This document shows, one piece after another, positions 943 through 33,710 of a stretch of DNA of 64,000 bases. The notes beneath the pieces are model-generated. The model searched no databases, was not told the DNA's origin, and was given only the letters and a program-made list of their open reading frames with translations. Within the stretch, counting starts at the first letter, position 1; the number at the start of each line of letters is the position of its first letter. The stretch comes from Sulfolobales archaeon (GTDB taxonomy: Archaea > Thermoproteota > Thermoprotei_A > Sulfolobales > NBVN01), in assembly GCA_026419835.1 (NCBI GenBank), contig JAOAKQ010000002.1, positions 62,001 through 126,000 on the forward strand, given 5' to 3'. Position numbers and translations under genes: made by a program.

Positions 943-1929
943 TTATATCGGTAGAGGTGGGAAGCCCTCGCCTAGGGGATCGTCCGGCTCTAGTACTACC
1001 GTTGAGTAGCTAGTTAAGTAGCACCCCCTCGCGGCAGTGGATATCTCGGGGATTACGGCATCGCGCCCGCCCACGGTCACTGTACCCACGATTCTCCCCG
1101 TGAACACGGTGTTCACGGCGCTAACGAACTCCACAGACTCGCGGACTTTCACTGCGTTGATGTGGTGTAGGTAGGCTAGGTGCGCGGAGGAGCCCGTGCC
1201 GGAAGGCGATCTATCGAGTAGAGGCCTCTCGGGACTTCCGAAGATTAGTATTCCGTAGTACTTCGGGGGTCTGCGCGTAACTACCTTCGAGAACCTGAAT
1301 CCGTAGAGCTCGTGCGGGGAAGCGGACCTAGCCTTCTCGCCGACTTCTCTCCAGATCTCCTTCGATAGCTCGACTAGATCAAGTAGAGAGCTCGGGTTCC
1401 AATCGACCCCCAGCTCGTCGAGGTCTACGACTCCGTACAGGTTGCCGCCGTAGGCTAGGTGAACGGGGACTCTACCGAACCTAGGTGAAGAGACCTCGGT
1501 AGATCCCAGGACGTACGACGGTACGTTCACTAACCTAACACTACCGCCCCGGTCTACGAAGAGCCTTACGAGACCGGCAGCGGTATCTAGAGATACTTCG
1601 GCAACTCCGTCGGGGAAGTCTATTGCGCCACTCCTAGCTAGATAGCACACCAACCCCATGGATGCGTGACCGCACATATCGTGCCACCCGCTGGAATCGA
1701 AGAAGAGAGCCCCGTACTGTGCTTCACCGCTGGCGGGACTCGTTACGAGAACTCCGTAGGAGCTTCCAGAACCCCTGGGCTCGTAGGTCAGTAGCTTGCG
1801 GATCCAGTCCAGGTTTCTCTCGCAGAACTTCTTCTTATCCACCATGCCAGAGCCCGGGACGCTCGGGGCGAAGACGATCCTAACTGGCATCCCGGCATTG
1901 TGAACCTCGATGAAGCTGAGAACCCTCAT
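943..1929 (-). CDS. Proline racemase / hydroxyproline dehydratase superfamily enzyme
   Basis: This 328-aa protein has the family hallmarks: VHNAGMPVRIV near the N-terminus (usually HTEGMPTRIV), the first catalytic cysteine in DMCGHASMG (C86) and the second-site loop DRSPSGTGSSAHLAY. The second catalytic position, Cys in proline racemases and 4-hydroxyproline 2-epimerases and often Thr in trans-3-hydroxyproline dehydratases, is Ser here (S243). That makes simple two-base racemisation unlikely and favours a dehydratase-type activity on hydroxyproline, by inference. It lies downstream of the SNF transporter operon and near the proline dehydrogenase genes, consistent with proline/hydroxyproline catabolism. 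A TATA-like GGTATTTAATA lies about 30 nt upstream of the ATG. Confidence 0.8.
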   Translation of the reverse strand: MRVLSFIEVHNAGMPVRIVFAPSVPGSGMVDKKKFCERNLDWIRKLLTYEPRGSGSSYGVLVTSPASGEAQYGALFFDSSGWHDMCGHASMGLVCYLARSGAIDFPDGVAEVSLDTAAGLVRLFVDRGGSVRLVNVPSYVLGSTEVSSPRFGRVPVHLAYGGNLYGVVDLDELGVDWNPSSLLDLVELSKEIWREVGEKARSASPHELYGFRFSKVVTRRPPKYYGILIFGSPERPLLDRSPSGTGSSAHLAYLHHINAVKVRESVEFVSAVNTVFTGRIVGTVTVGGRDAVIPEISTAARGCYLTSYSTVVLEPDDPLGEGFPPLPI

Positions 1930-2008
1930 ATCAGCTCCGAACGGGTAACCGCTTTCAAATATTAAATACCGAGCGGTTTTGAGTTAAATAAGAGTCGGGA
2001 GACCGCAG

Positions 2009-2016
2009 TAAAAAAT
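2009..2016 (-). terminator. T-run terminator after the SNF transporter operon
   Basis: On the minus strand a run of six T residues follows the stop codon of the 36-aa small protein within about 25 nt, before the promoter of the racemase-family gene. T-runs without a required hairpin are a known archaeal termination signal. The call rests only on the T-run and its position. Confidence 0.4.
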
Positions 2017-2037
2017 TGGGTTAAACTCGTTTTCAGC

Positions 2038-2148
2038 TTAGGACTTCGCGCCTTTAGATGCCGCGTAGTAGACTGAGAGTAGCCAGAGTATTGTCGTTGC
2101 TAGAGCTATTCCGAGAACGAGCCACCAGTCCGTGGGGAACGACTGCAC
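2038..2148 (-). CDS. Small single-TM protein, second partner of the SNF transporter
   Basis: Too short for the ORF track. A GTG at 2148 opens a 36-aa protein, MQSFPTDWWLVLGIALATTI..., with one central hydrophobic helix and a basic C-terminal tail (ASKGAKS). It begins 4 nt after the stop of the preceding small gene, which itself begins 4 nt after the SNF transporter stop. This tight three-gene spacing argues for co-translation. Small one-helix subunits are known beside some bacterial SNF-family transporters (MetS beside MetP), so a transporter accessory role is a reasonable inference. No sequence family was recognised. Confidence 0.65.
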   Translation of the reverse strand: MQSFPTDWWLVLGIALATTILWLLSVYYAASKGAKS

Positions 2149-2152
2149 AGTC

Positions 2153-2266
2153 TCACCCCTTCTCGACCTTCCTGATAGTTTTCTCGCTTTCAACGGCTCG
2201 GTACCAGGTGTATAGTGAGGCTATGACGAATAGCCAGGCTATTATGAAGAAGAGTACCCACGCCAC
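2153..2266 (-). CDS. Small single-TM protein, first partner of the SNF transporter
   Basis: Too short for the ORF track. A GTG at 2266 opens 37 residues, MAWVLFFIIAWLFVIASLYT..., with one strong transmembrane helix followed by a charged cytosolic-type tail (RAVESEKTIRKVEKG). It starts 4 nt downstream of the SNF transporter stop codon and precedes a second one-helix gene. Composition, spacing and repetition of the pattern support a real gene and an accessory role for the symporter, by analogy with MetS-type small subunits. No other family assignment can be made. Confidence 0.65.
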   Translation of the reverse strand: MAWVLFFIIAWLFVIASLYTWYRAVESEKTIRKVEKG

Positions 2267-2270
2267 TCTC

Positions 2271-3764
2271 TCACCCAGACTTCTTAAGCTGCTTCTCGAT
2301 CGACTTACTGACGATGAAGTACATCACGATACCGCCCAGTACTAGGATCACCATGCCGGGGAAGGTGTAGTAGGTGTGTAGCCCGGCTCCCCAACCTCTA
2401 ATCCACTCTCCGTAGATTATCCACCAGGCGAAGAACAGTATCGGGATGACTATGTTTACTTTAACTAGGTACTCCCACCACTTCCCAAGCTTTACGAAGG
2501 GCCTTACGTCCATGTCCGTAGCTCTCTCCCCAACTTTGGATATGTCGGTGAAGTACGAAGTTATTAGAGCTATGAAAACCAGCCCTATAGATAGACCTAC
2601 AACACCCCACACAGTATCGTAGTAGTCTAGCCAGTAGCCGCTGAGAGCCGTTGGAAGACCGCAGATGAACGCCAGCACGCCGGTAATTAGAGCCGCTTGG
2701 GGGGTCTTAATTCCGAAGTCTTTGAGAGGTCTTAGAGCTACCTCGTGAATAGTTATTAAGCTAGTGAACGCAGCGAACCAAAACGCGATGAAGAACAGTG
2801 CTGCGTAGGCGTGTCCTACGGCACCCATCTTCCTGAAGAGCTGTGGTAGGACTATGAAGGCCAGGCCTTCGCCAGCGGCCTTAATGTCTTGGTACGGTGT
2901 AGCTGAGATTGCGAATATCAGGGGTATTATAGCCGTCCCAGCCATCCAAGCTACCGCCGTATCGTTGACTACGTTTCCGAAGCTAACGAAGGTCGGGTCG
3001 TCGTTTCTCCTCATCCAAGCCCCGGCGCATATGAAGAAGCCCCACGCAATCCCTATGCTCCATATCACCTGGGATAAGGACTGCATCCAGGTAGATGGGT
3101 CCGCCAGGGCTTCCGGTCTAGGTACCATGTAGAACTCCAGTCCCTTCTCGGCTCCGGGTAGTGTTACCGTGTAGATCGCTAGACCCACGGTGAATATGAA
3201 GAGTAGTGGGAACATAAACCTAGCTACCTGCCCAATACCTCTAATACCGAAAGCCGTCACCAAGATGCTGAGAAACACCATGAAGGCTCCGACACCTAGA
3301 GATGCCGGCGTGTAGCCGAAGCCCTTCCAGAACGCGGATGCGTCGAATCCGGGAGCGAAGAAGGTCCCGGCTATTGCGTGCAGCATGTAGTAGAATATCC
3401 ACCCGGTAACTACCCAGTAGTAGCACATTATCATGAAGTCAGCCCAAGCCATCCACATACCTCCGAAGGCGGCCAGCTTCTTGTGCCTCTCCACTAGATT
3501 GAACGGTCCGTGAATAGGCCCTCCGCGCCCGAGCTTACCTATAGCGTACTCAGCTACTGCTAGCGGAAACGCTACTACTACGAGCCATATTAAGTACGTC
3601 AGTAGGAAGCTACCGCCACCGTAATTAGCGGCTCTCCACGAAAACCTCCAGTAGTTACCAGCACCGACGGACCACCCCACCGCCGCCATGAGTAGAGCGA
3701 AGCTACTCCAGGCACGTTCGAAAGTTCTAGCTATTAATGACTGGGGAGATGCGGTTTTCGACAT
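2271..3764 (-). CDS. SNF-family sodium-dependent amino acid symporter
   Basis: The 497-aa protein has about 12 hydrophobic segments and the neurotransmitter:sodium symporter TM1 region, FALLMAAVGWSVGAGNYWRFSW, where bacterial LeuT has a G-x-GNxWRFPY sequence lining the Na+ and substrate sites. GGGSFLLTYLIWLVVVAFPL follows as in TM2. The family couples Na+ to import of amino acids. The gene is divergent from the proline dehydrogenase operon, sharing a 250-bp promoter region, and has two one-helix genes immediately downstream. An amino-acid substrate is well supported by family; proline specificity is only suggested by context. Confidence 0.9.
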   Translation of the reverse strand: MSKTASPQSLIARTFERAWSSFALLMAAVGWSVGAGNYWRFSWRAANYGGGSFLLTYLIWLVVVAFPLAVAEYAIGKLGRGGPIHGPFNLVERHKKLAAFGGMWMAWADFMIMCYYWVVTGWIFYYMLHAIAGTFFAPGFDASAFWKGFGYTPASLGVGAFMVFLSILVTAFGIRGIGQVARFMFPLLFIFTVGLAIYTVTLPGAEKGLEFYMVPRPEALADPSTWMQSLSQVIWSIGIAWGFFICAGAWMRRNDDPTFVSFGNVVNDTAVAWMAGTAIIPLIFAISATPYQDIKAAGEGLAFIVLPQLFRKMGAVGHAYAALFFIAFWFAAFTSLITIHEVALRPLKDFGIKTPQAALITGVLAFICGLPTALSGYWLDYYDTVWGVVGLSIGLVFIALITSYFTDISKVGERATDMDVRPFVKLGKWWEYLVKVNIVIPILFFAWWIIYGEWIRGWGAGLHTYYTFPGMVILVLGGIVMYFIVSKSIEKQLKKSG

Positions 3765-3870
3765 ATAGATGCCTCGTGTAGATATGTAAACCGAGGTATA
3801 AATACTTTATACGCGTACGGCGCAAGCTTAAAACTTATTAGCTGTTGGATGGAGTAGTTCTCGGTGGTCT
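3765..3870. promoter_or_regulatory. Divergent promoter region, SNF transporter / proline dehydrogenase
   Basis: The gap holds two oppositely oriented TATA-like elements. GTATTTATAC (about 3794-3805) is placed some 35 nt upstream of the transporter ATG on the minus strand. CTTAAAACTTA (about 3828-3838) is placed about 30 nt upstream of the pdhA leader on the plus strand, followed by a Shine-Dalgarno-like GGTGG at 3863. A partly palindromic CGTATAAAGTATTTATAC stretch sits in the middle and could be a regulator site. No start codon of standard type was found for pdhA in this stretch. Confidence 0.5.
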
Positions 3871-5367
3871 ATTTCGCCACGCGATAGGAGAATTTGGGAG
3901 CACCCCATAGTATCGTTTAATCGCGGTCGCAAGCTAGCGATTCTCTTCGAGGGGCAGCCCGTCGATGCCTACGAGGGGGAGAGCGTTGCTATAGCTATCT
4001 ACGCTTCAGGTGTGGATACGCTATCGTGGAGTCCCAGCCTGGGTAGAGCTAGGGGGGCTTTCTGCATGATCGGTAAGTGCAGTAGCTGCTTTATGAAAGT
4101 AAACGGGGTTCCAAACGCCAAGACCTGTAGAGAACCCGTTAGAGAAGGACTGGTCGTTGAGAGGCAGAGAGGGTGGGTCCCACCGGCTGCCGGTGTTGAA
4201 GAACTCGGCTCAGTAGAGTTTCGCGAGGTCGAGACGGACCTGCTGGTTGTTGGTGGAGGACCGGCGGGGCTTTCAGCGGCTCTAAAAGCATCTGAGTGCG
4301 GACTCGACGTAGTTGTTGTGGATGAGCACTTTAAGATAGGTGGTCAGCTTCTAAAGCAGACACACAAGTTCTTCGGGAGTGTCGAGCTCTTCGGCGGAAT
4401 GAGGGGTTTCCAAATAGCTGAGGAGTACGCTAGGAGGATCGGGTCCAGTGAGAGGATAAGAGTTATACCTAGGTCCGCGGTTTACGGAGTCTTCAGGGGA
4501 GGTCTTGTAGGTGTCGTTGGAGAGAACTCTCATTACGTGATTAAGCCAAGGGCCGTTGTAGGCTCAACGGGTGCTTCGGAGAGGTACCTCGACTTCGTGA
4601 ACAACGACCTACCGGGTGTTATAGGTGCTGGAGGAGTTCAAACAATTATGAACGAGTACGGCGTTAAGCCGGGGGATAGCGCTCTCGTCGTAGGGTCCGG
4701 CAACGTGGGCTTGATAGTTGCGTACCAGCTACTCCAGGCTGGTGTAGCGGTTAGAGCTGTAGTGGAGATACTGCCCGAGATAGGTGGTTGGTTCGTTCAC
4801 GCAGCTAAGGTGAGGAGGTACGGAGTTCCAATACTTACCCAGCACACGATCAAAGCGGTGTACGGAAACGGTAAGGTTGAGGAAGCTGAGGTGGTAGCTG
4901 TAGATGAGAACTTCAACCCGATACCGGGCTCCGAGAAGAAGTTCAGAGTAGACCTAGTTCTCCTCGCCGTAGGTCTAGAACCCGATACCCGGCTCTTTTC
5001 TCAGTGTGGTGCCGTAATGAAGTGGTCTCCGGATCTCGGTGGTTTAGTACCTCTGAGAACCCCCGACCTAGAGACTTCCGTTAGGAACCTCTACGTAGCT
5101 GGCGATGCTTCCGGTATCGAGGAGGCTACCACGGCAATTATGGAGGGTTGGGTAGCGGCACTCTCCGCGGTCTCGAAGCTAGCCGATAAGTCGAGAGCTA
5201 GTAGAGCTGAGGAGGAGCTGGAGAAGATAAACAAGTTCCTGTGGGAGGAGTACAGAGCTTCACCAGTACTCGCTAGAGCTAGGCGTGGAAAGCAATCAGT
5301 TACCGTTAGTAGAGAGGAAATGGAGAAGATCAGAGCTGAGCACCCACCGCACGTTTCTTTTGGGTGA
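3871..5367 (+). CDS. pdhA: L-proline dehydrogenase complex alpha subunit (PdhA-type NAD/FAD oxidoreductase)
   Basis: The ORF track starts at GTG 4012, inside the N-terminal 2Fe-2S domain. Reading upstream in frame gives HPIVSFNRGRKLAILFEG, the conserved opening of this domain, so the real start is further left. No ATG, GTG or TTG exists between the upstream stop and that motif; ATT at 3871, just after GGTGG, is my best guess and gives 498 aa, the size of Thermococcus PdhA. The protein continues with Cys residues in FCMIGKCSSCFMKVNG (2Fe-2S), an FAD GGGPAGLSAA motif, a second GSGNVGL nucleotide motif and a C-terminal YVAGDASGIEEATTAI FAD-binding segment. It likely passes electrons from the PdhB flavin onward. 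Overall family is also sarcosine oxidase alpha/opine oxidase-like. Confidence 0.85.
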   Translation: MSPRDRRIWEHPIVSFNRGRKLAILFEGQPVDAYEGESVAIAIYASGVDTLSWSPSLGRARGAFCMIGKCSSCFMKVNGVPNAKTCREPVREGLVVERQRGWVPPAAGVEELGSVEFREVETDLLVVGGGPAGLSAALKASECGLDVVVVDEHFKIGGQLLKQTHKFFGSVELFGGMRGFQIAEEYARRIGSSERIRVIPRSAVYGVFRGGLVGVVGENSHYVIKPRAVVGSTGASERYLDFVNNDLPGVIGAGGVQTIMNEYGVKPGDSALVVGSGNVGLIVAYQLLQAGVAVRAVVEILPEIGGWFVHAAKVRRYGVPILTQHTIKAVYGNGKVEEAEVVAVDENFNPIPGSEKKFRVDLVLLAVGLEPDTRLFSQCGAVMKWSPDLGGLVPLRTPDLETSVRNLYVAGDASGIEEATTAIMEGWVAALSAVSKLADKSRASRAEEELEKINKFLWEEYRASPVLARARRGKQSVTVSREEMEKIRAEHPPHVSFG

Positions 5368-5374
5368 TCGGTCC

Positions 5375-5866
5375 GTGCCCAACTCCTCCTTCAGGAAGAC
5401 GGGGGTCGTTAGTCCGGAGGAGCTGGCTGCGCTAAACCTACTGCCTCCGGAGGATAGGTTGAAGAAGGGCCCCGTAGTCGTATTAGAGTGCCCTGAGATG
5501 ATTCCGTGCAACATATGCGTTCCCTACTGCCCTACGAAAGCAATTAAGATGGAGAAACTGATAGACATACCAGCAGTAGAGTGGGATAAGTGCATCGGCT
5601 GCGGTATCTGCGTAGCTGTCTGCCCGGGTCTAGCGGCTTTCGTGGTGGATACTTCAAAAAGCGACTTCGACTACGTCACCGTCCCCCACGAATTCATCCC
5701 GATTCCTAGAGTTGGTGACGAGGTGGTGCTTCTCAATAAGCTGGGTGAGGGAGTTGGAAGGGGGGTCGTCGTAAGGGTCTGGGAGAGGAATAGAACCTAC
5801 GTAATCACGGTTAGAGTTCCCAAGGGGCTTGGAATGGAGGTGAGAGCTGTATGGGTGGAGAGGTGA
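5375..5866 (+). CDS. pdhF: Proline dehydrogenase complex ferredoxin subunit (PdhF-like)
   Basis: The track ORF begins at 5285 inside pdhA; the GTG at 5375, 8 nt after the pdhA stop, gives 163 aa (about 18 kDa), matching the ~19-kDa PdhF of Thermococcales. Two 4Fe-4S motifs are visible: CPEMIPCNICVPYCPTKAI and CIGCGICVAVCPGLA. The C-terminal 60 residues form a non-ferredoxin domain (FIPIPRVGDEVVLLNK...). It should relay electrons between the flavin subunits. It overlaps pdhX by 16 nt, supporting translational coupling. Confidence 0.85.
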   Translation: MPNSSFRKTGVVSPEELAALNLLPPEDRLKKGPVVVLECPEMIPCNICVPYCPTKAIKMEKLIDIPAVEWDKCIGCGICVAVCPGLAAFVVDTSKSDFDYVTVPHEFIPIPRVGDEVVLLNKLGEGVGRGVVVRVWERNRTYVITVRVPKGLGMEVRAVWVER

Positions 5867-6147
5867 GGAAGTCCGGTGGTGTAGTAGTTGTGTGTAGATG
5901 TGAGGACGTAACCGCAGACGATATTAGAGAAGCTATTGAGCTCGGCATAGACGACTTCGAGCTGCTGAGGAGGTACTTAAAGATCGGCTTCGGTCCGTGC
6001 CAGGGTAGGAGCTGCGTAGCGATCGCGGCCAGGATCTTCGCTAGAGCTACCGGCAGGAAGATCGACGAGGTCCTCTCGAACTACAGGGTAAGGCCTCCGA
6101 TAGTTCCGGTCTCCGCGAAGTACTTCACTAGGGGGGCTAGAACGTGA
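5851..6147 (+). CDS. pdhX: Proline dehydrogenase complex BFD-like 2Fe-2S subunit (PdhX-like)
   Basis: The 98-aa protein has the Bfd-type 2Fe-2S pattern: VVVCRCEDVTADDIREAI, then GFGPCQGRSC about 35 residues later, giving four cysteines. The domain also occurs fused to opine oxidase and NirB proteins. In Thermococcus profundus a small subunit encoded between pdhF and pdhB has this position, so the assignment follows gene order and domain. It overlaps pdhB by four bases. Its size (about 10.7 kDa) fits a small electron-transfer subunit. Confidence 0.8.
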   Translation: MGGEVRKSGGVVVVCRCEDVTADDIREAIELGIDDFELLRRYLKIGFGPCQGRSCVAIAARIFARATGRKIDEVLSNYRVRPPIVPVSAKYFTRGART

Positions 6148-7283
6148 AGACCCTAATTATTGGAGCCGGTATTAGCGGTCTATTCGTAGCTTACGAACTA
6201 GCTCAGAGAGGTTTGCGGGATATCGTAGTTGTTGACGCTAGCTACCCGGGGAGTGGTGCGACTCTGAGAAACCTAGGGTGCTTCAGGTCCTCGTTCACAT
6301 CACCAGAGCACGTAGTGTTGATGAAGGAAAGCATTCGGGAGTGGCTGCGACTCGGTGATAGACTGGACCTGGAGATAGAGCAGAAGGGCTACCTCTGGGT
6401 AGCCCGCAAGCCAGAGACTCTAGACAACTTTAGGAAGCTCGTCGAGTTCCACCACCAGTTCAACGTGCCGACCCGGATACTCGATGTAGATGAGGTGAAG
6501 GCTCTGGAGCCTAGGCTAAACACTAAGATAGTTGCCGGAGCTATGTTTGACCCAACGGCCGGTAAGATGTCGATAATTAAGAACTTCACCAAGTTCTACC
6601 TCGAAGTTAAGAAGCTCGGGGTTAGAATCGTTCCCTACACTAGAGTAACTAAGTTAGTGGCTAGAGGTAGTAGAGTTACTGCGGCTGAAACGAGTAGTGG
6701 TACCGTGGAGGCGGATGCGTTCGTAGTTGCGGCAGCCGGAGATAGTCGGGATATAATCGCTACAGTAGGGGTCGACGTACCGATCGTTGATGTACCTAGG
6801 CATCCCTACGTAACGGAGCCCTACGCTAAGGCTATAGAGCCAGCACTAATAATCGACTGGGACACCCCCGGCTCACCACACGTAACTCAAACTAAGCACG
6901 GAAGCCTCATACTAGCAAGAGACCTAGAGGACACACCGCGCGCTTCACTGTACTCTCAGAGAGTTGACGCAATACCCCACATACTGAAACCTCTAAGAGA
7001 GCTCCTGCCATTCCTCTCGGAGGTAAACATCTTGAGGTACTGGATGGGGTACTACGACATGACACCAGACCACCACCCAATCTACGGACCGGTACAGCCC
7101 TACGAAAACCTCTACATAGCGGCGGGATTCAGCGGGCACGGAATGATGATGGGGCCGGTAACCGGGAAGTTAGTGGCGAGCTGGATTCTAGATGGAAAAC
7201 CGTACATTCCAATAGCCGGCAACCTCACTCTAGAGAGATTCAAGACCGGTAGGTTGGTGAAGGAGCTGGCCGTTATCGGCTAG
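6144..7283 (+). CDS. pdhB: L-proline dehydrogenase complex beta subunit (FAD, catalytic)
   Basis: The 379-aa protein is a DAO-family flavoprotein: it opens with KTLIIGAGISGLFVAYELA (Rossmann FAD motif), has GATLRNLGCFRSSFTSPEH near the flavin and ends with the YIAAGFSGHGMMMGPVTGKL C-terminal FAD segment. The pdhA-F-X-B order, overlaps and sizes match the hetero-tetrameric L-proline dehydrogenase of Thermococcales, where this subunit oxidises proline to pyrroline-5-carboxylate. Substrate could instead be hydroxyproline or sarcosine, since the family is broad; the neighbouring racemase-family gene supports an imino acid. Confidence 0.85.
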   Translation: MKTLIIGAGISGLFVAYELAQRGLRDIVVVDASYPGSGATLRNLGCFRSSFTSPEHVVLMKESIREWLRLGDRLDLEIEQKGYLWVARKPETLDNFRKLVEFHHQFNVPTRILDVDEVKALEPRLNTKIVAGAMFDPTAGKMSIIKNFTKFYLEVKKLGVRIVPYTRVTKLVARGSRVTAAETSSGTVEADAFVVAAAGDSRDIIATVGVDVPIVDVPRHPYVTEPYAKAIEPALIIDWDTPGSPHVTQTKHGSLILARDLEDTPRASLYSQRVDAIPHILKPLRELLPFLSEVNILRYWMGYYDMTPDHHPIYGPVQPYENLYIAAGFSGHGMMMGPVTGKLVASWILDGKPYIPIAGNLTLERFKTGRLVKELAVIG

Positions 7284-7379
7284 CCGAAGCCTCTCCCCAA
7301 GCCATACCCCGGTGGTTACAGGATTTTTCAATGTAGTTAACTAGCGCTTCTACCGGTAAACACTGAAGGCTGCGAATAG

Positions 7380-8858
7380 TCATCGGGTAGTGGCCGTCGC
7401 TACTCGCTTGTACTGCTCGGAGAGAATCTCGAGGTAGCTCATAAACACCTTAAAGCACTTCTCGTACTCTAGGCAAGCTACTTCCTTAGGTTCCACGCGC
7501 TCCGCTCTCTCGGTACCAACTACTTCTCCTAGGTTTTTCGATAGGTCACTTACGTGACCTAGAGCTCTCATTGCTACCAGAACCGCACCTAAGGAGCTGG
7601 CTAGTCTCGCCAGCTTCTCGCTGTAAATGACTACCGGTCTGCCTAGCACTGAAGACACCACCTCAACGAATCCCTTCAGGGAGCAACCACTACCTCCGCA
7701 GTGAAGTTCACTAACCGGTACGCCGTTCTCACTCAGCGCATCCAGTATCGCCTTTAAAATGAATGAAACCCCTTCAAAAGAAGCTCTCGCAATACTGGAG
7801 CGGCTGTGCTGAATTCCGAGTCCGGCAATAGTCAACCTCAAGTAGGGGTCCCTAAAGGGAAATCTTTCTCCAGCTAGGAAGGGGAGTACGTAAACACCGC
7901 CCCCGCATGGACTTGCCTTCTCTACTTCACTCATCACCTCACTCCACGAAGCACCTCCGAGGAGGTTCTGCCTAATCCACTCGAGCGCAGTCATACCGTT
8001 GTTGGAGGCGGCACCCACGGCAGTATAGCCATCCGCTGCGTAGTAGCAGAAGAACCTCATTCTCGGGTCTCTATCTAGGACTACCTCACGCTTTAAAACT
8101 CTTACTACAGCCGTTGAACCCAGATTCAGGACCGCTCTACTTCCGTATACACCATAACCTATATTCTGAAGAGCTCCGTCGAAAGAACCCGGCACTATAG
8201 CTACTCTCCTCAGGCCGAGTTCCGGTATCGATACGTAGTCAATTACGCGAGCTCCTTCAGAAAGCTCCGGAAGCTTCTCCTCACTTAAACCCGCTAGCTC
8301 TAGAGATAGGTCGTCCCACCTTAGTCTACGTATATTGAGCATTCCGGTGCCTGACGCCGTTCCGAAGTCTATCACTCTAAGACCGGCTAGTCTGTAGATT
8401 ACGTAATCCTTTACAAAGCTAACTCCACGCGCTCTCCGCAGAAGTTCTCTAGACCTAAACCAGAGGAGCTTAGCTAGAGGGTACACGAATAGCGGTGGGC
8501 AGCCAGTTCTTTCGTACAGAACTCTACCGAGCTCATCTAAACTGGCTTGTACAGAACCAGCTCTAGTATCTAAGTGTGTTAGCACACCCGTAATGGCCCT
8601 ACAATCTTCTCCTAATAGAGAAACTCCGTGCAGGTAGTTGCTGAAGGATAGTGCCTCTACTCTATCTTCAAACCCGGAAACAATCCTTCTTATAGACTCT
8701 GCGACTAGTCTCGCGATCCGCTCTAGGTCGTGCTCAGCAGCCCCCGCCTCCGGTGTCGTTAGCTCTATCGGCGTAGCTATCTCTTTAACTACGTAACCAC
8801 GAGCATCAGCTAAAGCCGTTTTAATTGAAGATGTGCCGACATCGACCGCTACGTACAT
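7380..8858 (-). CDS. FGGY-family carbohydrate kinase
   Basis: The 492-aa protein begins MYVAVDVGTSSIKTALADA, the phosphate-1 motif of the ASKHA/FGGY fold. It has the expected NLGSTAVVRV phosphate-2 region in the second half and a C-terminal LHCGGSGCSLKGFVEVVSSVLGRPV adenosine motif with SSLGAVLVA. Length is normal for xylulokinase, gluconokinase, glycerol kinase and relatives. The sugar or polyol substrate cannot be told from motifs I can see. It is convergent with pdhB and divergent from the Nramp-like transporter, with which it shares a regulatory region containing a strong palindrome. Confidence 0.8.
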   Translation of the reverse strand: MYVAVDVGTSSIKTALADARGYVVKEIATPIELTTPEAGAAEHDLERIARLVAESIRRIVSGFEDRVEALSFSNYLHGVSLLGEDCRAITGVLTHLDTRAGSVQASLDELGRVLYERTGCPPLFVYPLAKLLWFRSRELLRRARGVSFVKDYVIYRLAGLRVIDFGTASGTGMLNIRRLRWDDLSLELAGLSEEKLPELSEGARVIDYVSIPELGLRRVAIVPGSFDGALQNIGYGVYGSRAVLNLGSTAVVRVLKREVVLDRDPRMRFFCYYAADGYTAVGAASNNGMTALEWIRQNLLGGASWSEVMSEVEKASPCGGGVYVLPFLAGERFPFRDPYLRLTIAGLGIQHSRSSIARASFEGVSFILKAILDALSENGVPVSELHCGGSGCSLKGFVEVVSSVLGRPVVIYSEKLARLASSLGAVLVAMRALGHVSDLSKNLGEVVGTERAERVEPKEVACLEYEKCFKVFMSYLEILSEQYKRVATATTR

Positions 8859-12478: not shown

Positions 12479-12584
12479 CTTTCAGTTTTATCGTTTAGAT
12501 TCCGCGCTCAACCTTTCGTTCTCCATCACCTAGATCCTTCTGCGCCTAAATCACCGTGGGTTCGTAGGCTTTATCTTGGAGTAG
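12479..12584 (-). repeat. Degenerate CRISPR repeat plus leader relic (copy B)
   Basis: 12479-12502 matches the array repeat at 21 of 24 bases. It is followed by 11 nt starting CGCG, by a weaker repeat-like unit at 12514-12537, then by sequence resembling the array leader (CTTTATCTTGGAG near the end, against CTTTACCTTGGGAG beside the array). Geometry and orientation equal those of copy A and the true array end. No spacer follows on the left side; the DUF488 promoter does. Relic of a former CRISPR leader end is the best explanation. Confidence 0.6.
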
Positions 12585-23100: not shown

Positions 23101-23194
23101 CGAGCTACTTCCTCGCTACTTCCTTTCTTTTAAAAACGCTCCTACCTCGACTAGCGCGTTATTAGTTCAGTGCTCGTAGATCTACGTGAAGACT

Positions 23195-24013
23195 ATGTGC
23201 TGGGGTGTCTTGGGGAAGCTGGTGTCTGTGGAGGGTGTTGAGGGCGACGTCGAGGTCGGCGGCGTCCTCGTCAGAGCCCTCGTAGCTGTCGAGGGCGCTA
23301 GGCCGGGCGACGTCGTCCTAGTTCACGCCGGTGTCGTTATCGAGAAGTTAGATAGAGAGGGCGTTCTAGCTAACCTAGCCGTGTACTACGACCTAGTGAA
23401 GTACCACTACGTATTCAACGGCGCCAGCGAGGAGGAGGCGTCTAGGAGGGCTAGAGAAGACCTAGCCTCCCTAGCTAGAAGCCTCGGAATTCCGGAGGGG
23501 GAGGTCCTGAGAGCTCTTTCAGAGGAACCCGGGGGAGCGGCCGGCGGAGGTCCCGCAGAGGTCGAGGTCCCGGAGAAAGCCTTCTACATAGACTACAGCG
23601 TCCAGCTAGCCGAGACCGACTACCTCCAGGTAGTTCACTACACGAACTACTTGAGGATCTGCGAGAGAGCCTTCATGTCGGCCCTATCCAGCGCCGGGAT
23701 GAGCTACGGCAAGCTAATCCACGAGTACGGGATCTTCATACCCACGGTGGAGGTCAGCGCTAGGATAAGGTCGCCCTCGAGACTGGACAACTCGCTGAGG
23801 GTCTACGTCTGGGTGGAGGAAATCGGGAGAAAGCACCTAAAGTACAGGTGCGTAGTGCACAACAAAACTACCGGAAGGGTGGTGGCCGACGTAACCCACG
23901 TAGCCGTGTGCACGGACACGGCCATAACAGCAAGCCACGAAATACCGAAGGAGGTAAGGCAAGCACTCGAGAAACTGACCTCCAGCTACCGCTCCCCCAA
24001 CTCCACAGCCTGA
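23195..24013 (+). CDS. Fusion of HypC-like domain and hotdog (4HBT) acyl-CoA thioesterase
   Basis: The track starts at GTG 23186; ATG 23195 is preferred because HypC proteins begin Met-Cys and this gives MCWGVLGKLVSVEG. Residues 1-65 continue with ARPGDVVLVHAGVVIEKLD, matching HypC/HupF, the hydrogenase maturation chaperone whose Cys2 is functional. A charged helical linker (65-125) follows. Residues 130-265 are a YbgC-type hotdog: AETDYLQVVHYTNYLRICERAF, with Asp in the usual catalytic place. The combination is unusual; no hydrogenase gene is in the window. The DNA is visibly GC-richer than its neighbours. Start of the CRISPR array is 30 nt downstream. Confidence 0.75.
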   Translation: MCWGVLGKLVSVEGVEGDVEVGGVLVRALVAVEGARPGDVVLVHAGVVIEKLDREGVLANLAVYYDLVKYHYVFNGASEEEASRRAREDLASLARSLGIPEGEVLRALSEEPGGAAGGGPAEVEVPEKAFYIDYSVQLAETDYLQVVHYTNYLRICERAFMSALSSAGMSYGKLIHEYGIFIPTVEVSARIRSPSRLDNSLRVYVWVEEIGRKHLKYRCVVHNKTTGRVVADVTHVAVCTDTAITASHEIPKEVRQALEKLTSSYRSPNSTA

Positions 24014-24043: not shown

Positions 24044-25460
24044 CTTTCAATTCTATCGTTCAGATTCACAACTCTACTGTGCTGTATTCTAGTGCAGAAC
24101 TCTCTGTCTCTGAACTTTCAATTCTATCGTTCAGATTCTTGAGAGTAAGGCCAATCCGCGGGCTTGGAAACAGCATCTATACTTTCAATTCTATCGTTCA
24201 GATTCGCAAGAACTTGAAGCTATTATCACTGAAACGTGCAAAAACAATCCTTTCAATTCTATCGTTCAGATTCCGAAACACACGGTAAGCCATCATTTAG
24301 ACTATGGTTGTCGTCTCTTTCAATTCTATCGTTCAGATTCAAAGACGAAGAAGATATTAAAAGATTCGTGAAGAGTTGCATTGAACTTTCAATTCTATCG
24401 TTCAGATTCATACATAAGTAATACACAACAGGTCCACCATAAAAACGAACTCTCTACTTTCAATTCTATCGTTCAGATTCTTGAGAGAACTAAAAAGAAT
24501 CGTAAAAAAGTGCATTGAAGACCTTTCAATTCTATCGTTCAGATTCAAAGAAAAGTGAGGTGAAACAGAAACGATAGAAAAAGAGGAGACGACTTTCAAT
24601 TCTATCGTTCAGATTCAGGGTCAAAAACAATAGAGCATGGTGCTATCGAGCTGTCAGAAATCTTTCAATTCTATCGTTCAGATTCCTGAAGAAGAGTTCA
24701 AAAAAATATACGAGAAAATTATGAAAATTACTTTCAATTCTATCGTTCAGATTCATGAACTTCTTCTCGCTCATAACATAGCCATCAAGCCAGCTTCTTT
24801 CAATTCTATCGTTCAGATTCTTTATGCTAGCCACTTCTCGATGCAATTCCTTACTATTTTTTTCTTTCAATTCTATCGTTCAGATTCACAGAAAAAATAA
24901 CAGAGGAAGAACGAGAAGAAAGGGAAGAACTTTCAATTCTATCGTTCAGATTCAAAGACAAAAGAAATGATAATTATTCTCAACGAAACGCATATAATTA
25001 CTTTCAATTCTATCGTTCAGATTCACTATAACGTTCCAGCTGATAGTGGAGATAATCTACTAGCGACTTTCAATTCTATCGTTCAGATTCACGTACACAC
25101 AGGAAAAAAGTGCTGAGAAGATACTTCACGAGGCTTTCAATTCTATCGTTCAGATTCATATCTCCCACCTCGATGGTTCCGCGGCGGCGTTACATATAAA
25201 CTTTCAATTCTATCGTTCAGATTCATAAACTTCTTCTCGCTCATGACGTAGCCGTCTAATAAGCTTCTTTCAATTCTATCGTTCAGATTCAAGTGTTCTG
25301 CTTCAGTGAGTTTGAGAGCCCGCAGGGATCTCTCTTTCAATTCTATCGTTCAGATTCTGAAAAGATAATCGATGAGACGTGCAGAAATAACCGAGAAATG
25401 ACTTTCAATTCTATCGTTCAGATTCCGTGTTCCGCTTTTCCATCTCTATCGTTCAGATTC
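24044..25460 (-). CRISPR. CRISPR array, 24-bp repeats, about 22 repeats
   Basis: Twenty-one identical 24-bp repeats (plus-strand core TTCTATCGTTCAGATTC) start at 24044, 24115, 24182, 24250, 24317, 24386, 24457, 24523, 24593, 24662, 24731, 24797, 24864, 24930, 25001, 25067, 25134, 25201, 25267, 25334 and 25402. Spacers are 42-47 bp. A 22nd, degenerate unit (25437-25460) follows after only 11 bp and keeps just the inner 16 bases. The minus-strand repeat ends ATTGAAAG, the usual 8-nt crRNA 5' handle in crenarchaeal type I-A systems, so transcription is leftward from a leader on the right. Several spacers are homologous in translation (see findings). Confidence 0.98.
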
Positions 25461-25918: not shown

Positions 25919-26809
25919 GTGCCGGGGCGCCACGTGGTCGTGAGGACTGAAGCGCTACTCAGGTGGCTGAGGATTCTGAGGTCTCTCGCTGAGGGGTACC
26001 CAGTCGAGTCCGAGCTGAGGGGGTGGTCCTGGCAGTTCCCGCCGGTTAGACCCAGGTCCTACCTGGGGCTATCGGTTCAGGACGCTGTATCCTACTGCCC
26101 GACGAAGCGCGACGTCTGGCTGAGGAGGGTTGCCGGTGTTAGGGTCCAGCCGACTCAGTACATGAGGACCGGCTCGGCGGTCCACGACGTGGTGTTCTCC
26201 GTAGCCTCCCTAGTTAGGAGGCACTTCAACGCCAACCAGGACTTCGAGAGGCTCTCGAGAGCTGTGGGTAGGGTCGTGGAGTTGAAGAGCCGCGAGTGCC
26301 CCTCGGAGGAGTGCGTTAAGATCGTCAGGAGCGTTGGGTGGTTGACGTACCACACTGCCGCCTCCGAGTGGCTGTGGTCTGGCGCCGGGTCCCTGCCGAT
26401 ACCGGCTACGGCGAGCCTCTGCGAGGTGAGGGTCGATGGGTCCCCGGTGGGGCTGAGCGGTAGCTTGAGGGTGGACTCATTGCCGGTTCCGAACGTAGTC
26501 GTCGACATCAAGACTGGGAGGAAGGTCGAGGCACACGAAGTATCGCTAACGGCGTACGCACTGGCGCTGGAGTCGGCACTTGAAACGCCCGTGGACTTCG
26601 GGCTGCTGGTGTACGTGTGGTGGAGCGGGGGACTTCAGGTAGACCTAAGGGGGGTCTACATAGGCCCGGACCTGAGGAGAATGTTTCTGGATTCGAGAGA
26701 TGAAGCTATAGACATAATACTCTCGAGAAGGGAACCCCCGAATGCCGTTGAGTGCCCGCAGGCGTGTCCCTACGTGGAGGTGTGCGGGCGTGAGAACGCT
26801 CGTAGTTAG
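25919..26809 (+). CDS. csa1: Csa1 (Cas4-like nuclease, type I-A adaptation)
   Basis: The 296-aa protein contains ELRGWSWQFPPVRPRSYLGLSVQD-type sequence and YCPTKRDVWLRRVAGV, which I recognise from the Csa1 family, then the PD-(D/E)XK part (CEVRVDGSPVGLSG, VVDIKTGRK) and a C-terminal cysteine cluster (CPQACPYVEVCGR) for an Fe-S cluster. Cas4-type nucleases trim prespacers before integration by Cas1-Cas2. It is the first gene of the cas operon; the start GTG 25919 is uncertain and a GTG 21 nt further is also possible. It overlaps cas1. Confidence 0.85.
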   Translation: MPGRHVVVRTEALLRWLRILRSLAEGYPVESELRGWSWQFPPVRPRSYLGLSVQDAVSYCPTKRDVWLRRVAGVRVQPTQYMRTGSAVHDVVFSVASLVRRHFNANQDFERLSRAVGRVVELKSRECPSEECVKIVRSVGWLTYHTAASEWLWSGAGSLPIPATASLCEVRVDGSPVGLSGSLRVDSLPVPNVVVDIKTGRKVEAHEVSLTAYALALESALETPVDFGLLVYVWWSGGLQVDLRGVYIGPDLRRMFLDSRDEAIDIILSRREPPNAVECPQACPYVEVCGRENARS

Positions 26810-27776
26810 CGGCTATGGGGTGAAGATGTCCGTCGAGAAGGGCTCCGTGGTGCTCAAGACTAGGGAGGGGGCGAGCTGCGTACCTCTGAGTGAGGTGGAC
26901 TGCGTTCTAGTGACCACCTCGGGGGTATCGGTAACGTCTAAGGCAATAAGATACTTCACCAAGCTCGGGGTGATGCTGGTGTTCCTCGACTCGAGGGGGA
27001 TGCCTGCGGCAGTGCTCCACCACCCGTTCACGACTAGAACTGTGAGCACTAGGAGAGCGCAGTACGAAGCTCTCTACAACGGTAAAGCCGAGGAGGTCGT
27101 GAAGATCGTCGCCGCCTCTAAGCTGGGGAACCAGGCGGGGTTCGTGAGGAGGATCAGGAGGGAGCTGGGGATCGGCGAGCTAGCCGAGGTGGAGCGCAAA
27201 ATACTTGAGCTAGCCGACAGCATATCTAAGGTCAAGGGCAAGACCTTGAGCGAGCTGAGGTCTGAGGTTGTAAGTGTAGAAGCCACATCAGCAAGGCACT
27301 ACTGGTCGGCGATAGCCTCAATACTGCCGAGAGACCTAGGGTTCGAGGGCAGAGACCAGGACGGCTGCGACGCAGTTAACTGCGCTCTGAACTACGGCTA
27401 CGGAATGCTGTACTCGGTCGTCTGGAAGTACTTGTCGATACACGGTCTAGACCCCTACGCGGGGTTCCTCCACGTGGATAGGTCCGGGAAACCCGTCCTC
27501 ACGTTCGACGTCGTGGAGGTGTTTAGAGTGCCGGCGGTGGACCTTCCGGTTGTTAGAGCGCTAAGGCAGGGTGTGAAGCTCGAGGTAAGAAACTGCCTTC
27601 TGGGTCGCGAGTCTAGAGCTAAGGTATCGTCGGTAGTGCTTAGAGCTATGAGGGAGAAGTACTCCGCGTACGGGGAGGTAAAGGATCTGGAGGAGTGGGT
27701 GAGCAGCTTCTCGTCGGCGTTGGCCTCCTACCTGAGGGGCGAGTCCCAGGTGAGGCCCCTGGTCTTCAGGTGGTAA
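26790..27776 (+). CDS. cas1: CRISPR integrase Cas1
   Basis: The ORF track starts at 26742 within csa1; GTG 26790 gives 328 aa beginning VRTLVVSGYGVKMSVEKG, a normal Cas1 N-terminus. Catalytic-region motifs are visible: CALNYGYGMLYSVVWKYLSIHGLDPYAGFLH (with conserved His), FDVVEVFRVPAVDLPVV containing the metal-binding Asp/Glu. Cas1 forms the integrase core with Cas2. It overlaps csa1 by 20 nt and lies 2 nt before cas2. Confidence 0.93.
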   Translation: MRTLVVSGYGVKMSVEKGSVVLKTREGASCVPLSEVDCVLVTTSGVSVTSKAIRYFTKLGVMLVFLDSRGMPAAVLHHPFTTRTVSTRRAQYEALYNGKAEEVVKIVAASKLGNQAGFVRRIRRELGIGELAEVERKILELADSISKVKGKTLSELRSEVVSVEATSARHYWSAIASILPRDLGFEGRDQDGCDAVNCALNYGYGMLYSVVWKYLSIHGLDPYAGFLHVDRSGKPVLTFDVVEVFRVPAVDLPVVRALRQGVKLEVRNCLLGRESRAKVSSVVLRAMREKYSAYGEVKDLEEWVSSFSSALASYLRGESQVRPLVFRW

Positions 27777-27778
27777 CC

Positions 27779-28075
27779 GTGAGGACTCTAGTAGTGTACG
27801 ATATAGGAGACAACCTCACTAGGGAGGAGTTCGCCAGGAAGCTGAAGCAGCTTGGGTTGGAGAGGATACAGAGGTCGTGTTTTCTAGGCAGGGGCGGCAT
27901 CGAGCTGGCTAAGACCGTGGTTAGGATTGCCGAGAGGACCGTGAATGCGAGGAGAGACGTGGTTCACGTGTTTCTTCTCGACGAGTACAGCTTTAGGAGC
28001 ATGAGGTGCGTAGGCAGGCCCCTTAATTGGGGGAGGACCGAGGGGGTCGAATTTGTTGGTGGCTACGGTACGTAA
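27779..28075 (+). CDS. cas2: CRISPR-associated Cas2
   Basis: Taking GTG 27779 (not the track start 27695 inside cas1) gives 98 aa: VRTLVVYDIGDNLTREEFARKL, with the Asp of the first strand in YDIGD as in Cas2 ferredoxin-fold proteins. RIQRSCFLGRGG fits the dimer face (usually QxSVF). It bridges two Cas1 dimers. It begins 2 nt after cas1 and overlaps cas4 by 23 nt. Confidence 0.88.
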   Translation: MRTLVVYDIGDNLTREEFARKLKQLGLERIQRSCFLGRGGIELAKTVVRIAERTVNARRDVVHVFLLDEYSFRSMRCVGRPLNWGRTEGVEFVGGYGT

Positions 28076-28607
28076 CTACGTAACCTCCGCGGACGTGAAG
28101 GAGTACGTGTACTGCCCGGCGATAGTCTGGATCAGGCACGTACTGAACGTAGAAGAACCGCAGGACTTCAACATGGCTTTCGGAAGGTCTAAGTCGTACC
28201 GCCTAGACGTTCTAGAGAGAGTGGGCGTTCGAAAGCCCTGGTCGTTCGAGGTCTTCCTCAGGAATCCGTCTAAAGGTATTGCCGGAGTAGTGGATGTCGT
28301 CGGGGGTAGCGGGAGGTTCGAGGTGGTGGAGCTCAAGGCCTTCCGGAGGCGGAGCTTTAGTCACTTCAAGTCTCAGCTGATGTTCCACGCGTACCTAGTG
28401 TCTACTACTATGGGACCGGTTACGAGGGCCTACCTAGTCCTAGATGATAGAGTAAGGGCCTACGTAGTTAACGAGACCGCCACGAGGGATGTCGAGCGGA
28501 TTATCGAGGGGGTCAGGAGGGTTAGGGAATCCGAGAGACCCCCGCGGGCATCTAGAAGTTGGAAGTGTCGTCTGTGCTGGTACAGGAGGTACTGCCCTAG
28601 CGCCTAG
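28053..28607 (+). CDS. cas4: Cas4 RecB-like nuclease
   Basis: The 184-aa protein has VTSADVKEYVYCPAIVWIRHV (first Fe-S cysteine), FEVVELKAFRRR (the D/E-x-K part of the nuclease), QLMFHAYLV (QhxxY motif) and C-terminal WKCRLCWYRRYC (three Cys). These are the signature elements of Cas4. Together with Csa1 it gives the two-Cas4 adaptation set seen in Sulfolobales/Desulfurococcales type I-A loci. Its beginning overlaps cas2. Confidence 0.9.
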   Translation: MLVATVRNYVTSADVKEYVYCPAIVWIRHVLNVEEPQDFNMAFGRSKSYRLDVLERVGVRKPWSFEVFLRNPSKGIAGVVDVVGGSGRFEVVELKAFRRRSFSHFKSQLMFHAYLVSTTMGPVTRAYLVLDDRVRAYVVNETATRDVERIIEGVRRVRESERPPRASRSWKCRLCWYRRYCPSA

Positions 28608-28649: not shown

Positions 28650-29285
28650 ATGGGGAGGGTCTTCATAGTATCGCTCGGTTTTCACGAGGATGTGGTTATG
28701 AGGATGTTCGTAAGTAGGTCCATCACCGAGAAAGATAGGGTCTACTTGATAACCGGTAGCAAAGCTCAGCAGGTTGCTTCCGCGTACGATTCGCTAGTAG
28801 CTCTCTGTAGAAAAATGAAGCTCCCAGACCCGGAGCTAGTGGAAATACCCATGGACTTGTTCGGCGGCGTTAGTAGAATCGTAGAGATCCTGAAGAGAGC
28901 CGACGAAGAGATAGTGGTAGACCTGTCGGGCGGCATGAGGTACCTCCTCGTGTTCGCTCTGGTGGCGCTATTCCTATCGGGTCGATCGGCGACGATATAC
29001 GTACGGCCGGAAAGTGGTGAGGACATTGAGATAAAGGTTCCCAGGCAGGTTCTGGAGATAGCTAGAAACCCCCCGAGGGGTATTCACGTTGAAATCCTGA
29101 GAGCGGTTCGCGATAGCGAAGGCATCTCCGCGAAGGACTTGTCTAGAGTTTTAGGCAAGTCCGCTAAGACTATTGCTAACTGCCTCACGGAACTCGGTAG
29201 ACTCGGGCTAATCTCTAGAAGAGGGAGAGGGGGAGGCGTGTACTTAACCGAACTCGGTAGGCTAGTACTAGCACTTGCTGGGTAG
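28650..29285 (+). CDS. csa3: Csa3, CARF-HTH CRISPR regulator
   Basis: The 211-aa protein has an N-terminal CARF-like Rossmann domain (VFIVSLGFHEDVVMRMF, then VVDLSGGMRYLLVFALVAL) and a C-terminal winged helix (GISAKDLSRVLGKSAKTIANCL, then GLISRRGRGGGVYLTELGR). Csa3 proteins bind cyclic oligonucleotides or related ligands and control cas and CRISPR promoters. It begins 42 nt after cas4 and precedes cas6. Confidence 0.9.
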   Translation: MGRVFIVSLGFHEDVVMRMFVSRSITEKDRVYLITGSKAQQVASAYDSLVALCRKMKLPDPELVEIPMDLFGGVSRIVEILKRADEEIVVDLSGGMRYLLVFALVALFLSGRSATIYVRPESGEDIEIKVPRQVLEIARNPPRGIHVEILRAVRDSEGISAKDLSRVLGKSAKTIANCLTELGRLGLISRRGRGGGVYLTELGRLVLALAG

Positions 29286-29290
29286 TTGGC

Positions 29291-30196
29291 GTGCTGGTTC
29301 AGGTCGCTAGACTGGCGGTCGTCCCCCTAGCGGACTGCGTGGCGCCACCTGTCACCTCCAAGATACTCAAGTACTGCTACGGAGGGAACATACCCAGGAG
29401 AATTGTTGGCAGTCTCATCAACGTATCTATCTCAATGCTCTTCAGGAGCGGTAGGGCTCTGTACTCTATCGATGGAGCTCCGGAGCCTCTAGTACTGAAA
29501 GCCGGTGAGAGGTACTCGGCCAGGCTTTCCATCGTAGACAGCACGGCGGACTTCGTGGATAGGGTCAACAAGCTCGGCCTCGACTCCTTCAACTGCGAGT
29601 CGCCGTACGGGAGCTACCACATCTCGATATCCGAGATCGAGGTCGTACCGCTGGAGAAGCTGGGCATGGACCTCCCCAGGGTGTTTAAGGTAGTGTTCCA
29701 CACACCAACCATCCTGAACTCCAAGCTGATGTCGCCACCCCCACTAGCTAGTAAGGTCGCAGCGGCTCACAAGCTCATGCCCCAGCCATCCTTCATCTTC
29801 TCCCACCTCCTCAGGTTCTGGAATGCCTACGCACCGCCGGAGCGCAAGCTGGGGAAGCCCAGCGAGTGGGCACCGTACTTGCTCGGAAGAATGGCCGACG
29901 TATCCCTGGTGGAACTGGACTACAGAGTTAGAGCTGTGACCGCGGTGGTGGGTAAGGACGATAGGGGGAGGCTCAGGAAGTCTCGGGGGTTCGTAGGCTG
30001 GGTAGTGTACGAATCGAAAGCCAATAGAAAGCTCCACGACATAGTATCGAAACTACTAGCACTAGCATCACTCGTAGGTGTAGGAAGGTCTAGAGGACTA
30101 GGATTTGGGCACGTATCCGTAGAAGTTCCGGCTACTCCCGAGATAGAGCCTAAAGAAACCCCAAATAGTAGGAACGCAGAAGGTTGGCGTACGTAG
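29291..30196 (+). CDS. cas6: CRISPR pre-crRNA endoribonuclease Cas6
   Basis: The 301-aa protein has two RAMP-like halves and ends with the Gly-rich loop VGVGRSRGLGFGHVSV, the Cas6 signature. FHTPTILNSKLMSPPP is a typical mid-protein segment. It should cleave the repeat RNA before the 8-nt ATTGAAAG handle. It is separated from csa3 by 5 nt. No Cascade genes follow; a tRNA is next. Confidence 0.88.
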   Translation: MLVQVARLAVVPLADCVAPPVTSKILKYCYGGNIPRRIVGSLINVSISMLFRSGRALYSIDGAPEPLVLKAGERYSARLSIVDSTADFVDRVNKLGLDSFNCESPYGSYHISISEIEVVPLEKLGMDLPRVFKVVFHTPTILNSKLMSPPPLASKVAAAHKLMPQPSFIFSHLLRFWNAYAPPERKLGKPSEWAPYLLGRMADVSLVELDYRVRAVTAVVGKDDRGRLRKSRGFVGWVVYESKANRKLHDIVSKLLALASLVGVGRSRGLGFGHVSVEVPATPEIEPKETPNSRNAEGWRT

Positions 30197-33640: not shown

Positions 33641-33710
33641 CTTTCAATTCTATCGTTCAGATTCCTCTGCGCTCCTATTGTCTGAGGGCCTATGAACTTC
33701 ATCTTGGGAG
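33641..33710 (-). repeat. Solo CRISPR repeat with leader segment (copy D)
   Basis: 33641-33664 is identical in all 24 positions to the array repeat. Directly to its right is TATTGTCTGAGGG ... CTTCATCTTGGGAG, matching the leader beside the main array. No spacer or second repeat is present; the GNAT gene stops two bases to the left. Orientation equals the main array. It looks like a collapsed or never-expanded leader end. Confidence 0.85.

What the first reader, a model, noticed from the sequence alone, without database searches (positions are those of the whole stretch)
24755..25266. Two spacers sample the same viral gene at the same position
Spacers 24755-24796 and 25225-25266 (both 42 bp) are alignable end to end. 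On the minus strand they read S-W/L-LDGYVMSEKKFM; differences are nearly all third-position synonymous changes (GAT/GAC, TAT/TAC, GTT/GTC, TTC/TTT). This indicates independent capture of the same PAM-fixed protospacer from two diverged relatives of one virus or plasmid gene.
Basis: seen in the sequence. Interest (0 to 1): 0.75.

Follow-up and report, generated by a model that had tools for sequence, protein, structure and literature searches.

The report
Two CRISPR memories of one site
Two entries in an archaeon's CRISPR immune memory are the same short piece of a virus-type gene taken from two diverged relatives, and this is the rule in this genome: about half of its 310 readable entries record the same few targets again and again.

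Summary
Spacers 24755-24796 and 25225-25266 (42 bp each) align end to end with 34/42 identical bases. The similarity is far above chance: alignment score 52, against at most 36 in shuffled sets.

The genome carries about 341 repeat copies. Of 310 readable spacers, 155 fall into 41 homologous families, while three sister species show almost none. Differences between homologous spacers follow codon periodicity (30 families, p<2e-4). One contig of the same genome (C11) holds the targeted element, a virus-like segment with a spindle-virus-type integrase: 72 of 310 spacers match it, six from this array. Mapped protospacers carry a CC/CT-type PAM. Four sites were captured repeatedly, at the same base next to CCN, from relatives differing by up to about 25%.

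The source gene of the finding's own pair was not found in any collection searched, so its PAM is inferred. Array duplication is unlikely. This is ordinary type I-A adaptation against a drifting virus lineage, unusually dense. By-product: the targeted segment carries a solitary perfect host repeat, a candidate RNA anti-CRISPR.

The parts
24044..25425 (-). CRISPR array, 21 perfect 24-nt repeats and 20 spacers; crRNA-sense repeat GAATCTGAACGATAGAATTGAAAG, leader end on the right
25225..25266 (-). Spacer S3 (newer) of the finding: A-AGC-TTA-TTA-GAC-GGC-TAC-GTC-ATG-AGC-GAG-AAG-AAG-TTT-AT, peptide SLLDGYVMSEKKF
24755..24796 (-). Spacer S10 (older) of the finding: A-AGC-TGG-CTT-GAT-GGC-TAT-GTT-ATG-AGC-GAG-AAG-AAG-TTC-AT, peptide SWLDGYVMSEKKF
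25358..25401 (-). Spacer S1, maps to C11 element L032:4496-4539, 11 mismatches, PAM CTC; overlaps the S18 site 9 nt away
25158..25200 (-). Spacer S4, maps to L032:7394-7436, 2 mismatches, PAM CCA
25091..25133 (-). Spacer S5, maps to L032:4205-4247, 11 mismatches, PAM CCA
24954..25000 (-). Spacer S7, maps to L032:5973-6019, PAM CCC; the same base starts spacers L035_1839 and L034_462 from other arrays
24206..24249 (-). Spacer S18, maps to L032:4487-4530, 3 mismatches, PAM CTG
24139..24181 (-). Spacer S19, maps to L032:2711-2753, 3 mismatches
24341..24385 (-). Spacer S16, peptide EEDIKRFVKSCIE on the opposite strand; homologous to other spacers of this genome, similar peptides in S9 and S14
25437..25460 (-). 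Degenerate leader-side repeat (4 mismatches) separated from repeat 1 by AGCGGAACACG; the same 11-nt unit occurs at five array ends
25919..26809 (+). csa1 (Cas4-family, subtype I-A)
26742..27776 (+). cas1
27695..28075 (+). cas2 (the domain begins near residue 30 of this ORF)
28053..28607 (+). cas4
28650..29285 (+). csa3 (CARF regulator of I-A adaptation)
29291..30196 (+). cas6

Best explanation
The two spacers were acquired in separate events by the type I-A adaptation machinery encoded next to the array (Csa1, Cas1, Cas2, Cas4). They come from the homologous position of one protein-coding gene in two diverged members of a virus or mobile-element lineage that repeatedly infects this Sulfolobales archaeon. 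The start is set by a PAM of CCN/CTN type, so captures of the same site in different relatives begin at the same base. Shown: homology, codon-level conservation, the genome-wide pattern, and the PAM and shared start for other sites of a captured element. Inferred: that this pair obeys the same rule, and that its source is a virus gene.
For: The pair scores 52 against a null maximum of 36. 112 DNA-level pairs in 44 families were found among 310 spacers; with protein-level links 155 spacers fall in 41 families, and none in shuffled sets. Sister species G131, G132 and G133 have 0, 1 and 3 links among 115, 67 and 108 spacers; the own set subsampled to 110 has a mean of 23. Differences are codon-phased over 30 independent families: 152 of 254 in the best phase, against 122.6 +/- 4.1, 0 of 5000 shuffles. 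Of 26 co-starting pairs only 2 are in the same array, about what random placement gives. Upstream bases read from overlapping spacers are pyrimidine at -2 in 38 of 38 and C at -3 in 26 of 38. Contig C11 carries the targeted element: 72 of 310 spacers match, PAM -3 C in 46 of 67 and -2 C/T in 64 of 67. Sites 6720, 5973, 6050 and 2736 were each taken 2-3 times at the same base beside CC, from variants up to about 25% diverged or more from the C11 copy. The adjacent genes are csa1-cas1-cas2-cas4-csa3-cas6.
Against: No source for LDGYVMSEKKF was found in IMG/VR, 85,462 genomes or the own genome, nor by translated search in phages and plasmids, nor in the C11 element, so the PAM of this pair is unread. 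With only 8 differences, the codon argument for this pair alone is weak (p=0.03). The genome is a draft (84% complete, 107 contigs).
Confidence: 0.93

Rival explanations
1. Array duplication followed by point mutation: one spacer-repeat unit was copied within the array and then drifted.
For: Duplications of array units do occur in this genus: G133 has a two-unit block repeated (L062 419/484 and 550/615).
Against: That real duplication is a block of neighbouring units with 100% identity. Here the neighbours (S2, S4 and S9, S11) are unrelated, all 21 repeats are identical, and drift would not be codon-phased. Homologous spacers elsewhere differ in length and offset and lie in different arrays.
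Confidence: 0.03
2. Virus escape and re-vaccination at the same site: the virus mutated the targeted site to escape the older spacer and the cell captured the mutant, possibly by primed adaptation.
For: S10 is older than S3 in the array, and same-site pairs are common: 8 exact pairs on the C11 element against 1.2 expected from PAM-weighted sampling. Seed-region escape has been reported for SIRVs of Sulfolobus islandicus (PMC6452263).
Against: Differences are not concentrated in the PAM-side seed: 20% at positions 1-7 against 19% elsewhere over 19 families, p=0.63. They are spread and codon-phased, like long divergence. With local PAM weighting, exact pairs are 8 of 14 against 3 expected (p=0.003), but only 4 of 10 independent site clusters are exact, close to expectation.
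Confidence: 0.1
3. Chance resemblance or convergence between unrelated spacers.
For: None beyond the AT-rich, lysine/glutamate-rich character of many spacers.
Against: Score 52 against shuffled maxima of 32-36 among about 96,000 comparisons per set.
Confidence: 0.001
4. The archive is a mixture of several strains binned together, each with its own captures.
For: Many array contigs are short and end inside arrays; contig C15 carries N gaps and inverted array pieces.
Against: The finding's two spacers lie on one contig in one array. No full spacer is repeated between arrays, although strains would share old spacers; one 53-nt stretch is shared by two spacers of different length.
Confidence: 0.05

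Closest known systems
Sulfolobales type I-A CRISPR arrays and their CC-PAM-dependent spacers (e.g. Sulfolobus islandicus, PMC6452263)
   Same: CC at -3/-2 on the crRNA strand and spacers against diverging local viruses; from general knowledge, the same adaptation genes and a repeat ending in ATTGAAAG.
   Different: There, multiplicity was measured against known viruses across strains. Here half of the spacers of one genome fall into families of diverged copies of the same targets.
Tiling of viral genomes by overlapping spacers in a Sulfolobales CRISPRome (PMC6858448)
   Same: Overlapping spacers cover the same viral regions and allow unknown virus pieces to be read.
   Different: That used a whole community sequenced deeply; here one draft genome already shows it, with the PAM readable from spacer overlaps alone.
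Large spindle-shaped virus integrases (Acidianus two-tailed virus, STSV1/2, SMV1)
   Same: The C11 element's integrase is 36-42% identical over 93-96% of its length.
   Different: The other C11 proteins tested (the ATPase by translated search, the rest against PHROGs) showed no clear relative; distant relatives of three of them lie together on a contig of another Sulfolobales genome.

Membership tests
Type I-A CRISPR-Cas adaptation locus | csa1, cas1, cas2 and cas4 genes next to the array, with csa3 regulator | tested here: met
   PADLOC and Pfam matches
Type I-A CRISPR-Cas adaptation locus | CC (or related pyrimidine) PAM at -3/-2 on the crRNA strand | tested here: met
   CC 28, CT 17, TT 7, TC 4 of 67
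Type I-A CRISPR-Cas adaptation locus | I-A interference genes (Csa5, Cas7, Cas5, Cas8a, Cas3) in the genome | tested here: inconclusive
   DevR/Cas7 models found none, but the control search missed Sulfolobus acidocaldarius too; Cas10 (type III) not found; the genome is 84% complete
Independent captures of one protospacer from diverged relatives | Codon-phased divergence between the spacers | tested here: met
   pooled; this pair alone p=0.03
Independent captures of one protospacer from diverged relatives | Shared start beside a PAM in the source genome | tested here: inconclusive
   met for four other sites of the C11 element; the source of the finding's own pair was not found
Array segmental duplication | Neighbouring units duplicated together, near-identical sequence | tested here: not met
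   contrast with the true duplication in L062

The most novel reading that the evidence does not exclude
The cell preferentially updates an outdated memory at the same site: binding of an old, mismatched crRNA to its drifted target would steer the adaptation machinery to re-capture exactly that protospacer, so that arrays build up versioned copies of one address.
Probability: 0.1. Interest if true: 0.75.

Novelty: new member of a known kind. Interest (0 to 1): 0.42.

Why it matters
One draft genome holds a readable history of a drifting virus lineage: the spacers alone give the PAM, coding frames, conserved peptides and divergence of a virus group not found in the collections searched, and they point to its only assembled member. 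The density of repeated capture makes it possible to ask whether same-site capture follows from PAM hot spots alone or is guided by earlier spacers.

Tried and rejected
Degenerate-codon scans for DGYVMSEKK(F) in viral contigs, the own genome and 85,462 genomes found nothing beyond the two spacers. A WFFGASTEP pattern gave nothing in viral contigs or in 214 genomes of the order beyond the arrays. A concatenation of a subset of the family spacers against phages by blastn: none. Composite peptides read from overlapping spacers against phages, plasmids, viral contigs, genomes of the order, PHROGs and Pfam: no source, except one peptide matching an integrase family (E=0.0024), which corresponds to the C11 integrase found later. 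A first blastn with unsupported gap costs returned nothing and was redone. Excess same-site capture looked strong at pair level but weak at the level of independent site clusters, so I do not claim it.

Full report
What is there. The array lies at 24044-25425: 21 perfect copies of a 24-nt repeat and 20 spacers. In crRNA sense the repeat is GAATCTGAACGATAGAATTGAAAG, so the minus strand is the crRNA strand and the leader end is on the right, facing csa1, cas1, cas2, cas4, csa3 and cas6. The strand assignment rests on the known Sulfolobales repeat orientation (general knowledge) and on the leader shared with another array. The window belongs to a Sulfolobales draft genome (1.42 Mb, 107 contigs, 84% complete); the closest named relative by Cas1 (80%) is Sulfolobales archaeon SKW299. 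Counting from the leader, the finding's spacers are S3 (25225-25266) and S10 (24755-24796).

The observation. The two 42-nt spacers agree at 34 positions. In the second frame of the minus strand they read SLLDGYVMSEKKF and SWLDGYVMSEKKF. The alignment score of 52 compares with maxima of 32-36 in eight complete shuffled comparisons. Codon phasing in this pair alone is suggestive only (p=0.03).

It is not an isolated pair. The repeat occurs about 341 times in the genome. From the contigs that carry it I parsed 310 spacers. 112 pairs are homologous at DNA level, in 44 families; adding protein-level links gives 155 spacers in 41 families, with none in shuffled sets. Three sister species carrying near-identical repeats have 115, 67 and 108 spacers but only 0, 1 and 3 links, while the own set subsampled to 110 has a mean of 23 and never fewer than 11. 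Two of the three G133 links form a true duplication of a two-unit block at 100% identity, which shows what duplication looks like in this genus.

Test of the coding argument. Over 30 families taken once each, 152 of 254 differences fall in the best codon phase against 122.6 +/- 4.1 for randomly placed differences; none of 5000 shuffles reached the observed value. Differences are not concentrated near the PAM side (20% in positions 1-7, 19% elsewhere, p=0.63). This looks like long divergence between virus lineages rather than recent escape mutations.

The target. Peptides pieced together from overlapping spacers found no source in known collections, except one that matched an integrase family. 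Contig C11 (L032) has two array pieces flanking a 5.8-kb segment, 1692-7488, of 41% G+C, encoding a tyrosine integrase whose nearest relatives are integrases of large spindle-shaped viruses (36-42%), an ATPase and small membrane proteins. 72 of the 310 spacers match this segment, six of them from the window's array: S1, S4, S5, S7, S18 and S19. Almost no other part of the genome that I fetched is matched; long contigs were fetched only in part. Both ends of the segment cut through open frames where array sequence begins, and the left junction fits a 44-nt spacer followed by a CCT PAM, so the joining of array and element is probably an assembly effect at perfectly matching spacers; insertion into an array is not excluded.

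The PAM. From spacer overlaps alone, the base at -2 is a pyrimidine in 38 of 38 cases and C at -3 in 26 of 38. On the C11 segment CC accounts for 28, CT 17, TT 7 and TC 4 of 67 placements. This agrees with the CC PAM used for Sulfolobus islandicus (PMC6452263). Four sites of the segment were captured two or three times at exactly the same base, all next to CC: 6720 (three spacers, CCA), 5973 (three, including S7 of this array, CCC), 6050 (two, CCG) and 2736 minus strand (two, CCA). At 6720 the three spacers differ from the segment at 3, 10 and 11 positions.

How far the claim reaches. The source of LDGYVMSEKKF itself is not on C11, not found elsewhere in the genome beyond the two spacers, and not in the collections searched. 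That this pair started at a PAM is therefore an inference from its end-to-end alignment and from the other sites. Same-site pairs exceed a PAM-weighted expectation at the level of pairs (8 against 1.2 over the segment; 8 of 14 local pairs against 3, p=0.003), but only 4 of 10 independent site clusters are exact, and conserved regions are easier to recognise. Plain PAM-directed sampling is enough; guided updating is possible but unproven.

Verdict. The finding is real and, apart from the terminal M, correctly read. It is an instance of ordinary type I-A adaptation against a diverging virus lineage. What is unusual is the density: half of the readable archive of one genome consists of repeated captures of the same targets. 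Repeated or overlapping sampling of viruses by Sulfolobales spacers is already reported (PMC6858448, PMC6452263), hence a new member of a known kind.

Noticed in passing
L032 (G000:C11) 2280-2303, targeted segment 1692-7488: A solitary perfect copy of the host CRISPR repeat, in crRNA sense, about 60 nt downstream of GACCGAAAAGCTTAAAT, a promoter-like sequence that also precedes the next gene (near 2530). The flanks can pair as a 12-bp G+C-rich stem (GGGGCUGGGGAA / UUCCCCGGCCCC) holding the repeat in the loop (fold z -2.5; arm match reached by 4% of random flank pairs). Candidate solitary repeat unit / RNA anti-CRISPR (compare PMC10651486); an assembly join is less likely but not excluded.
   Followed up: partly
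window 33641-33664; G000:C10:4259-4282; degenerate copy at window 12479-12502: Solitary host repeats next to a conserved leader-like block (CTCCCAAGRTRAAG..CCTCAGACA in the first two, weaker in the third), i.e. leaders with a single repeat and no spacers.
   Followed up: partly
window 25426-25460 and leader ends in L034, L035, L037, L038: Five array ends share the 11-nt unit AGCGGAACACG with a degenerate repeat between leader and first functional repeat; in the window and L038 arrays the leader is nearly identical over 125 nt.
   Followed up: partly
spacers of L032-L038 matching REEERWETVEIIHNTGPRRIERRYLYDNIIDIVFVVYPIYPYLNYVATHMRLDKTMMIAEMW: About 30 spacers, on both strands, come from versions of one unknown protein (a composite peptide pieced together from them) that is not encoded on C11, suggesting a second target or an unassembled part.
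   Followed up: partly
L250 (contig of another Sulfolobales genome) 2004-4642: Relatives of three C11 proteins (48%, 39%, 26% identity) lie together, probably a related virus or provirus.
   Followed up: no
window 23186-24013: One open frame with a HypC/HupF domain (residues 4-65) followed by a thioesterase domain (139-261), an unusual combination.
   Followed up: no
L034 (G000:C15): Array pieces in opposite orientations and a run of N, probably a mis-scaffolded contig.
   Followed up: no
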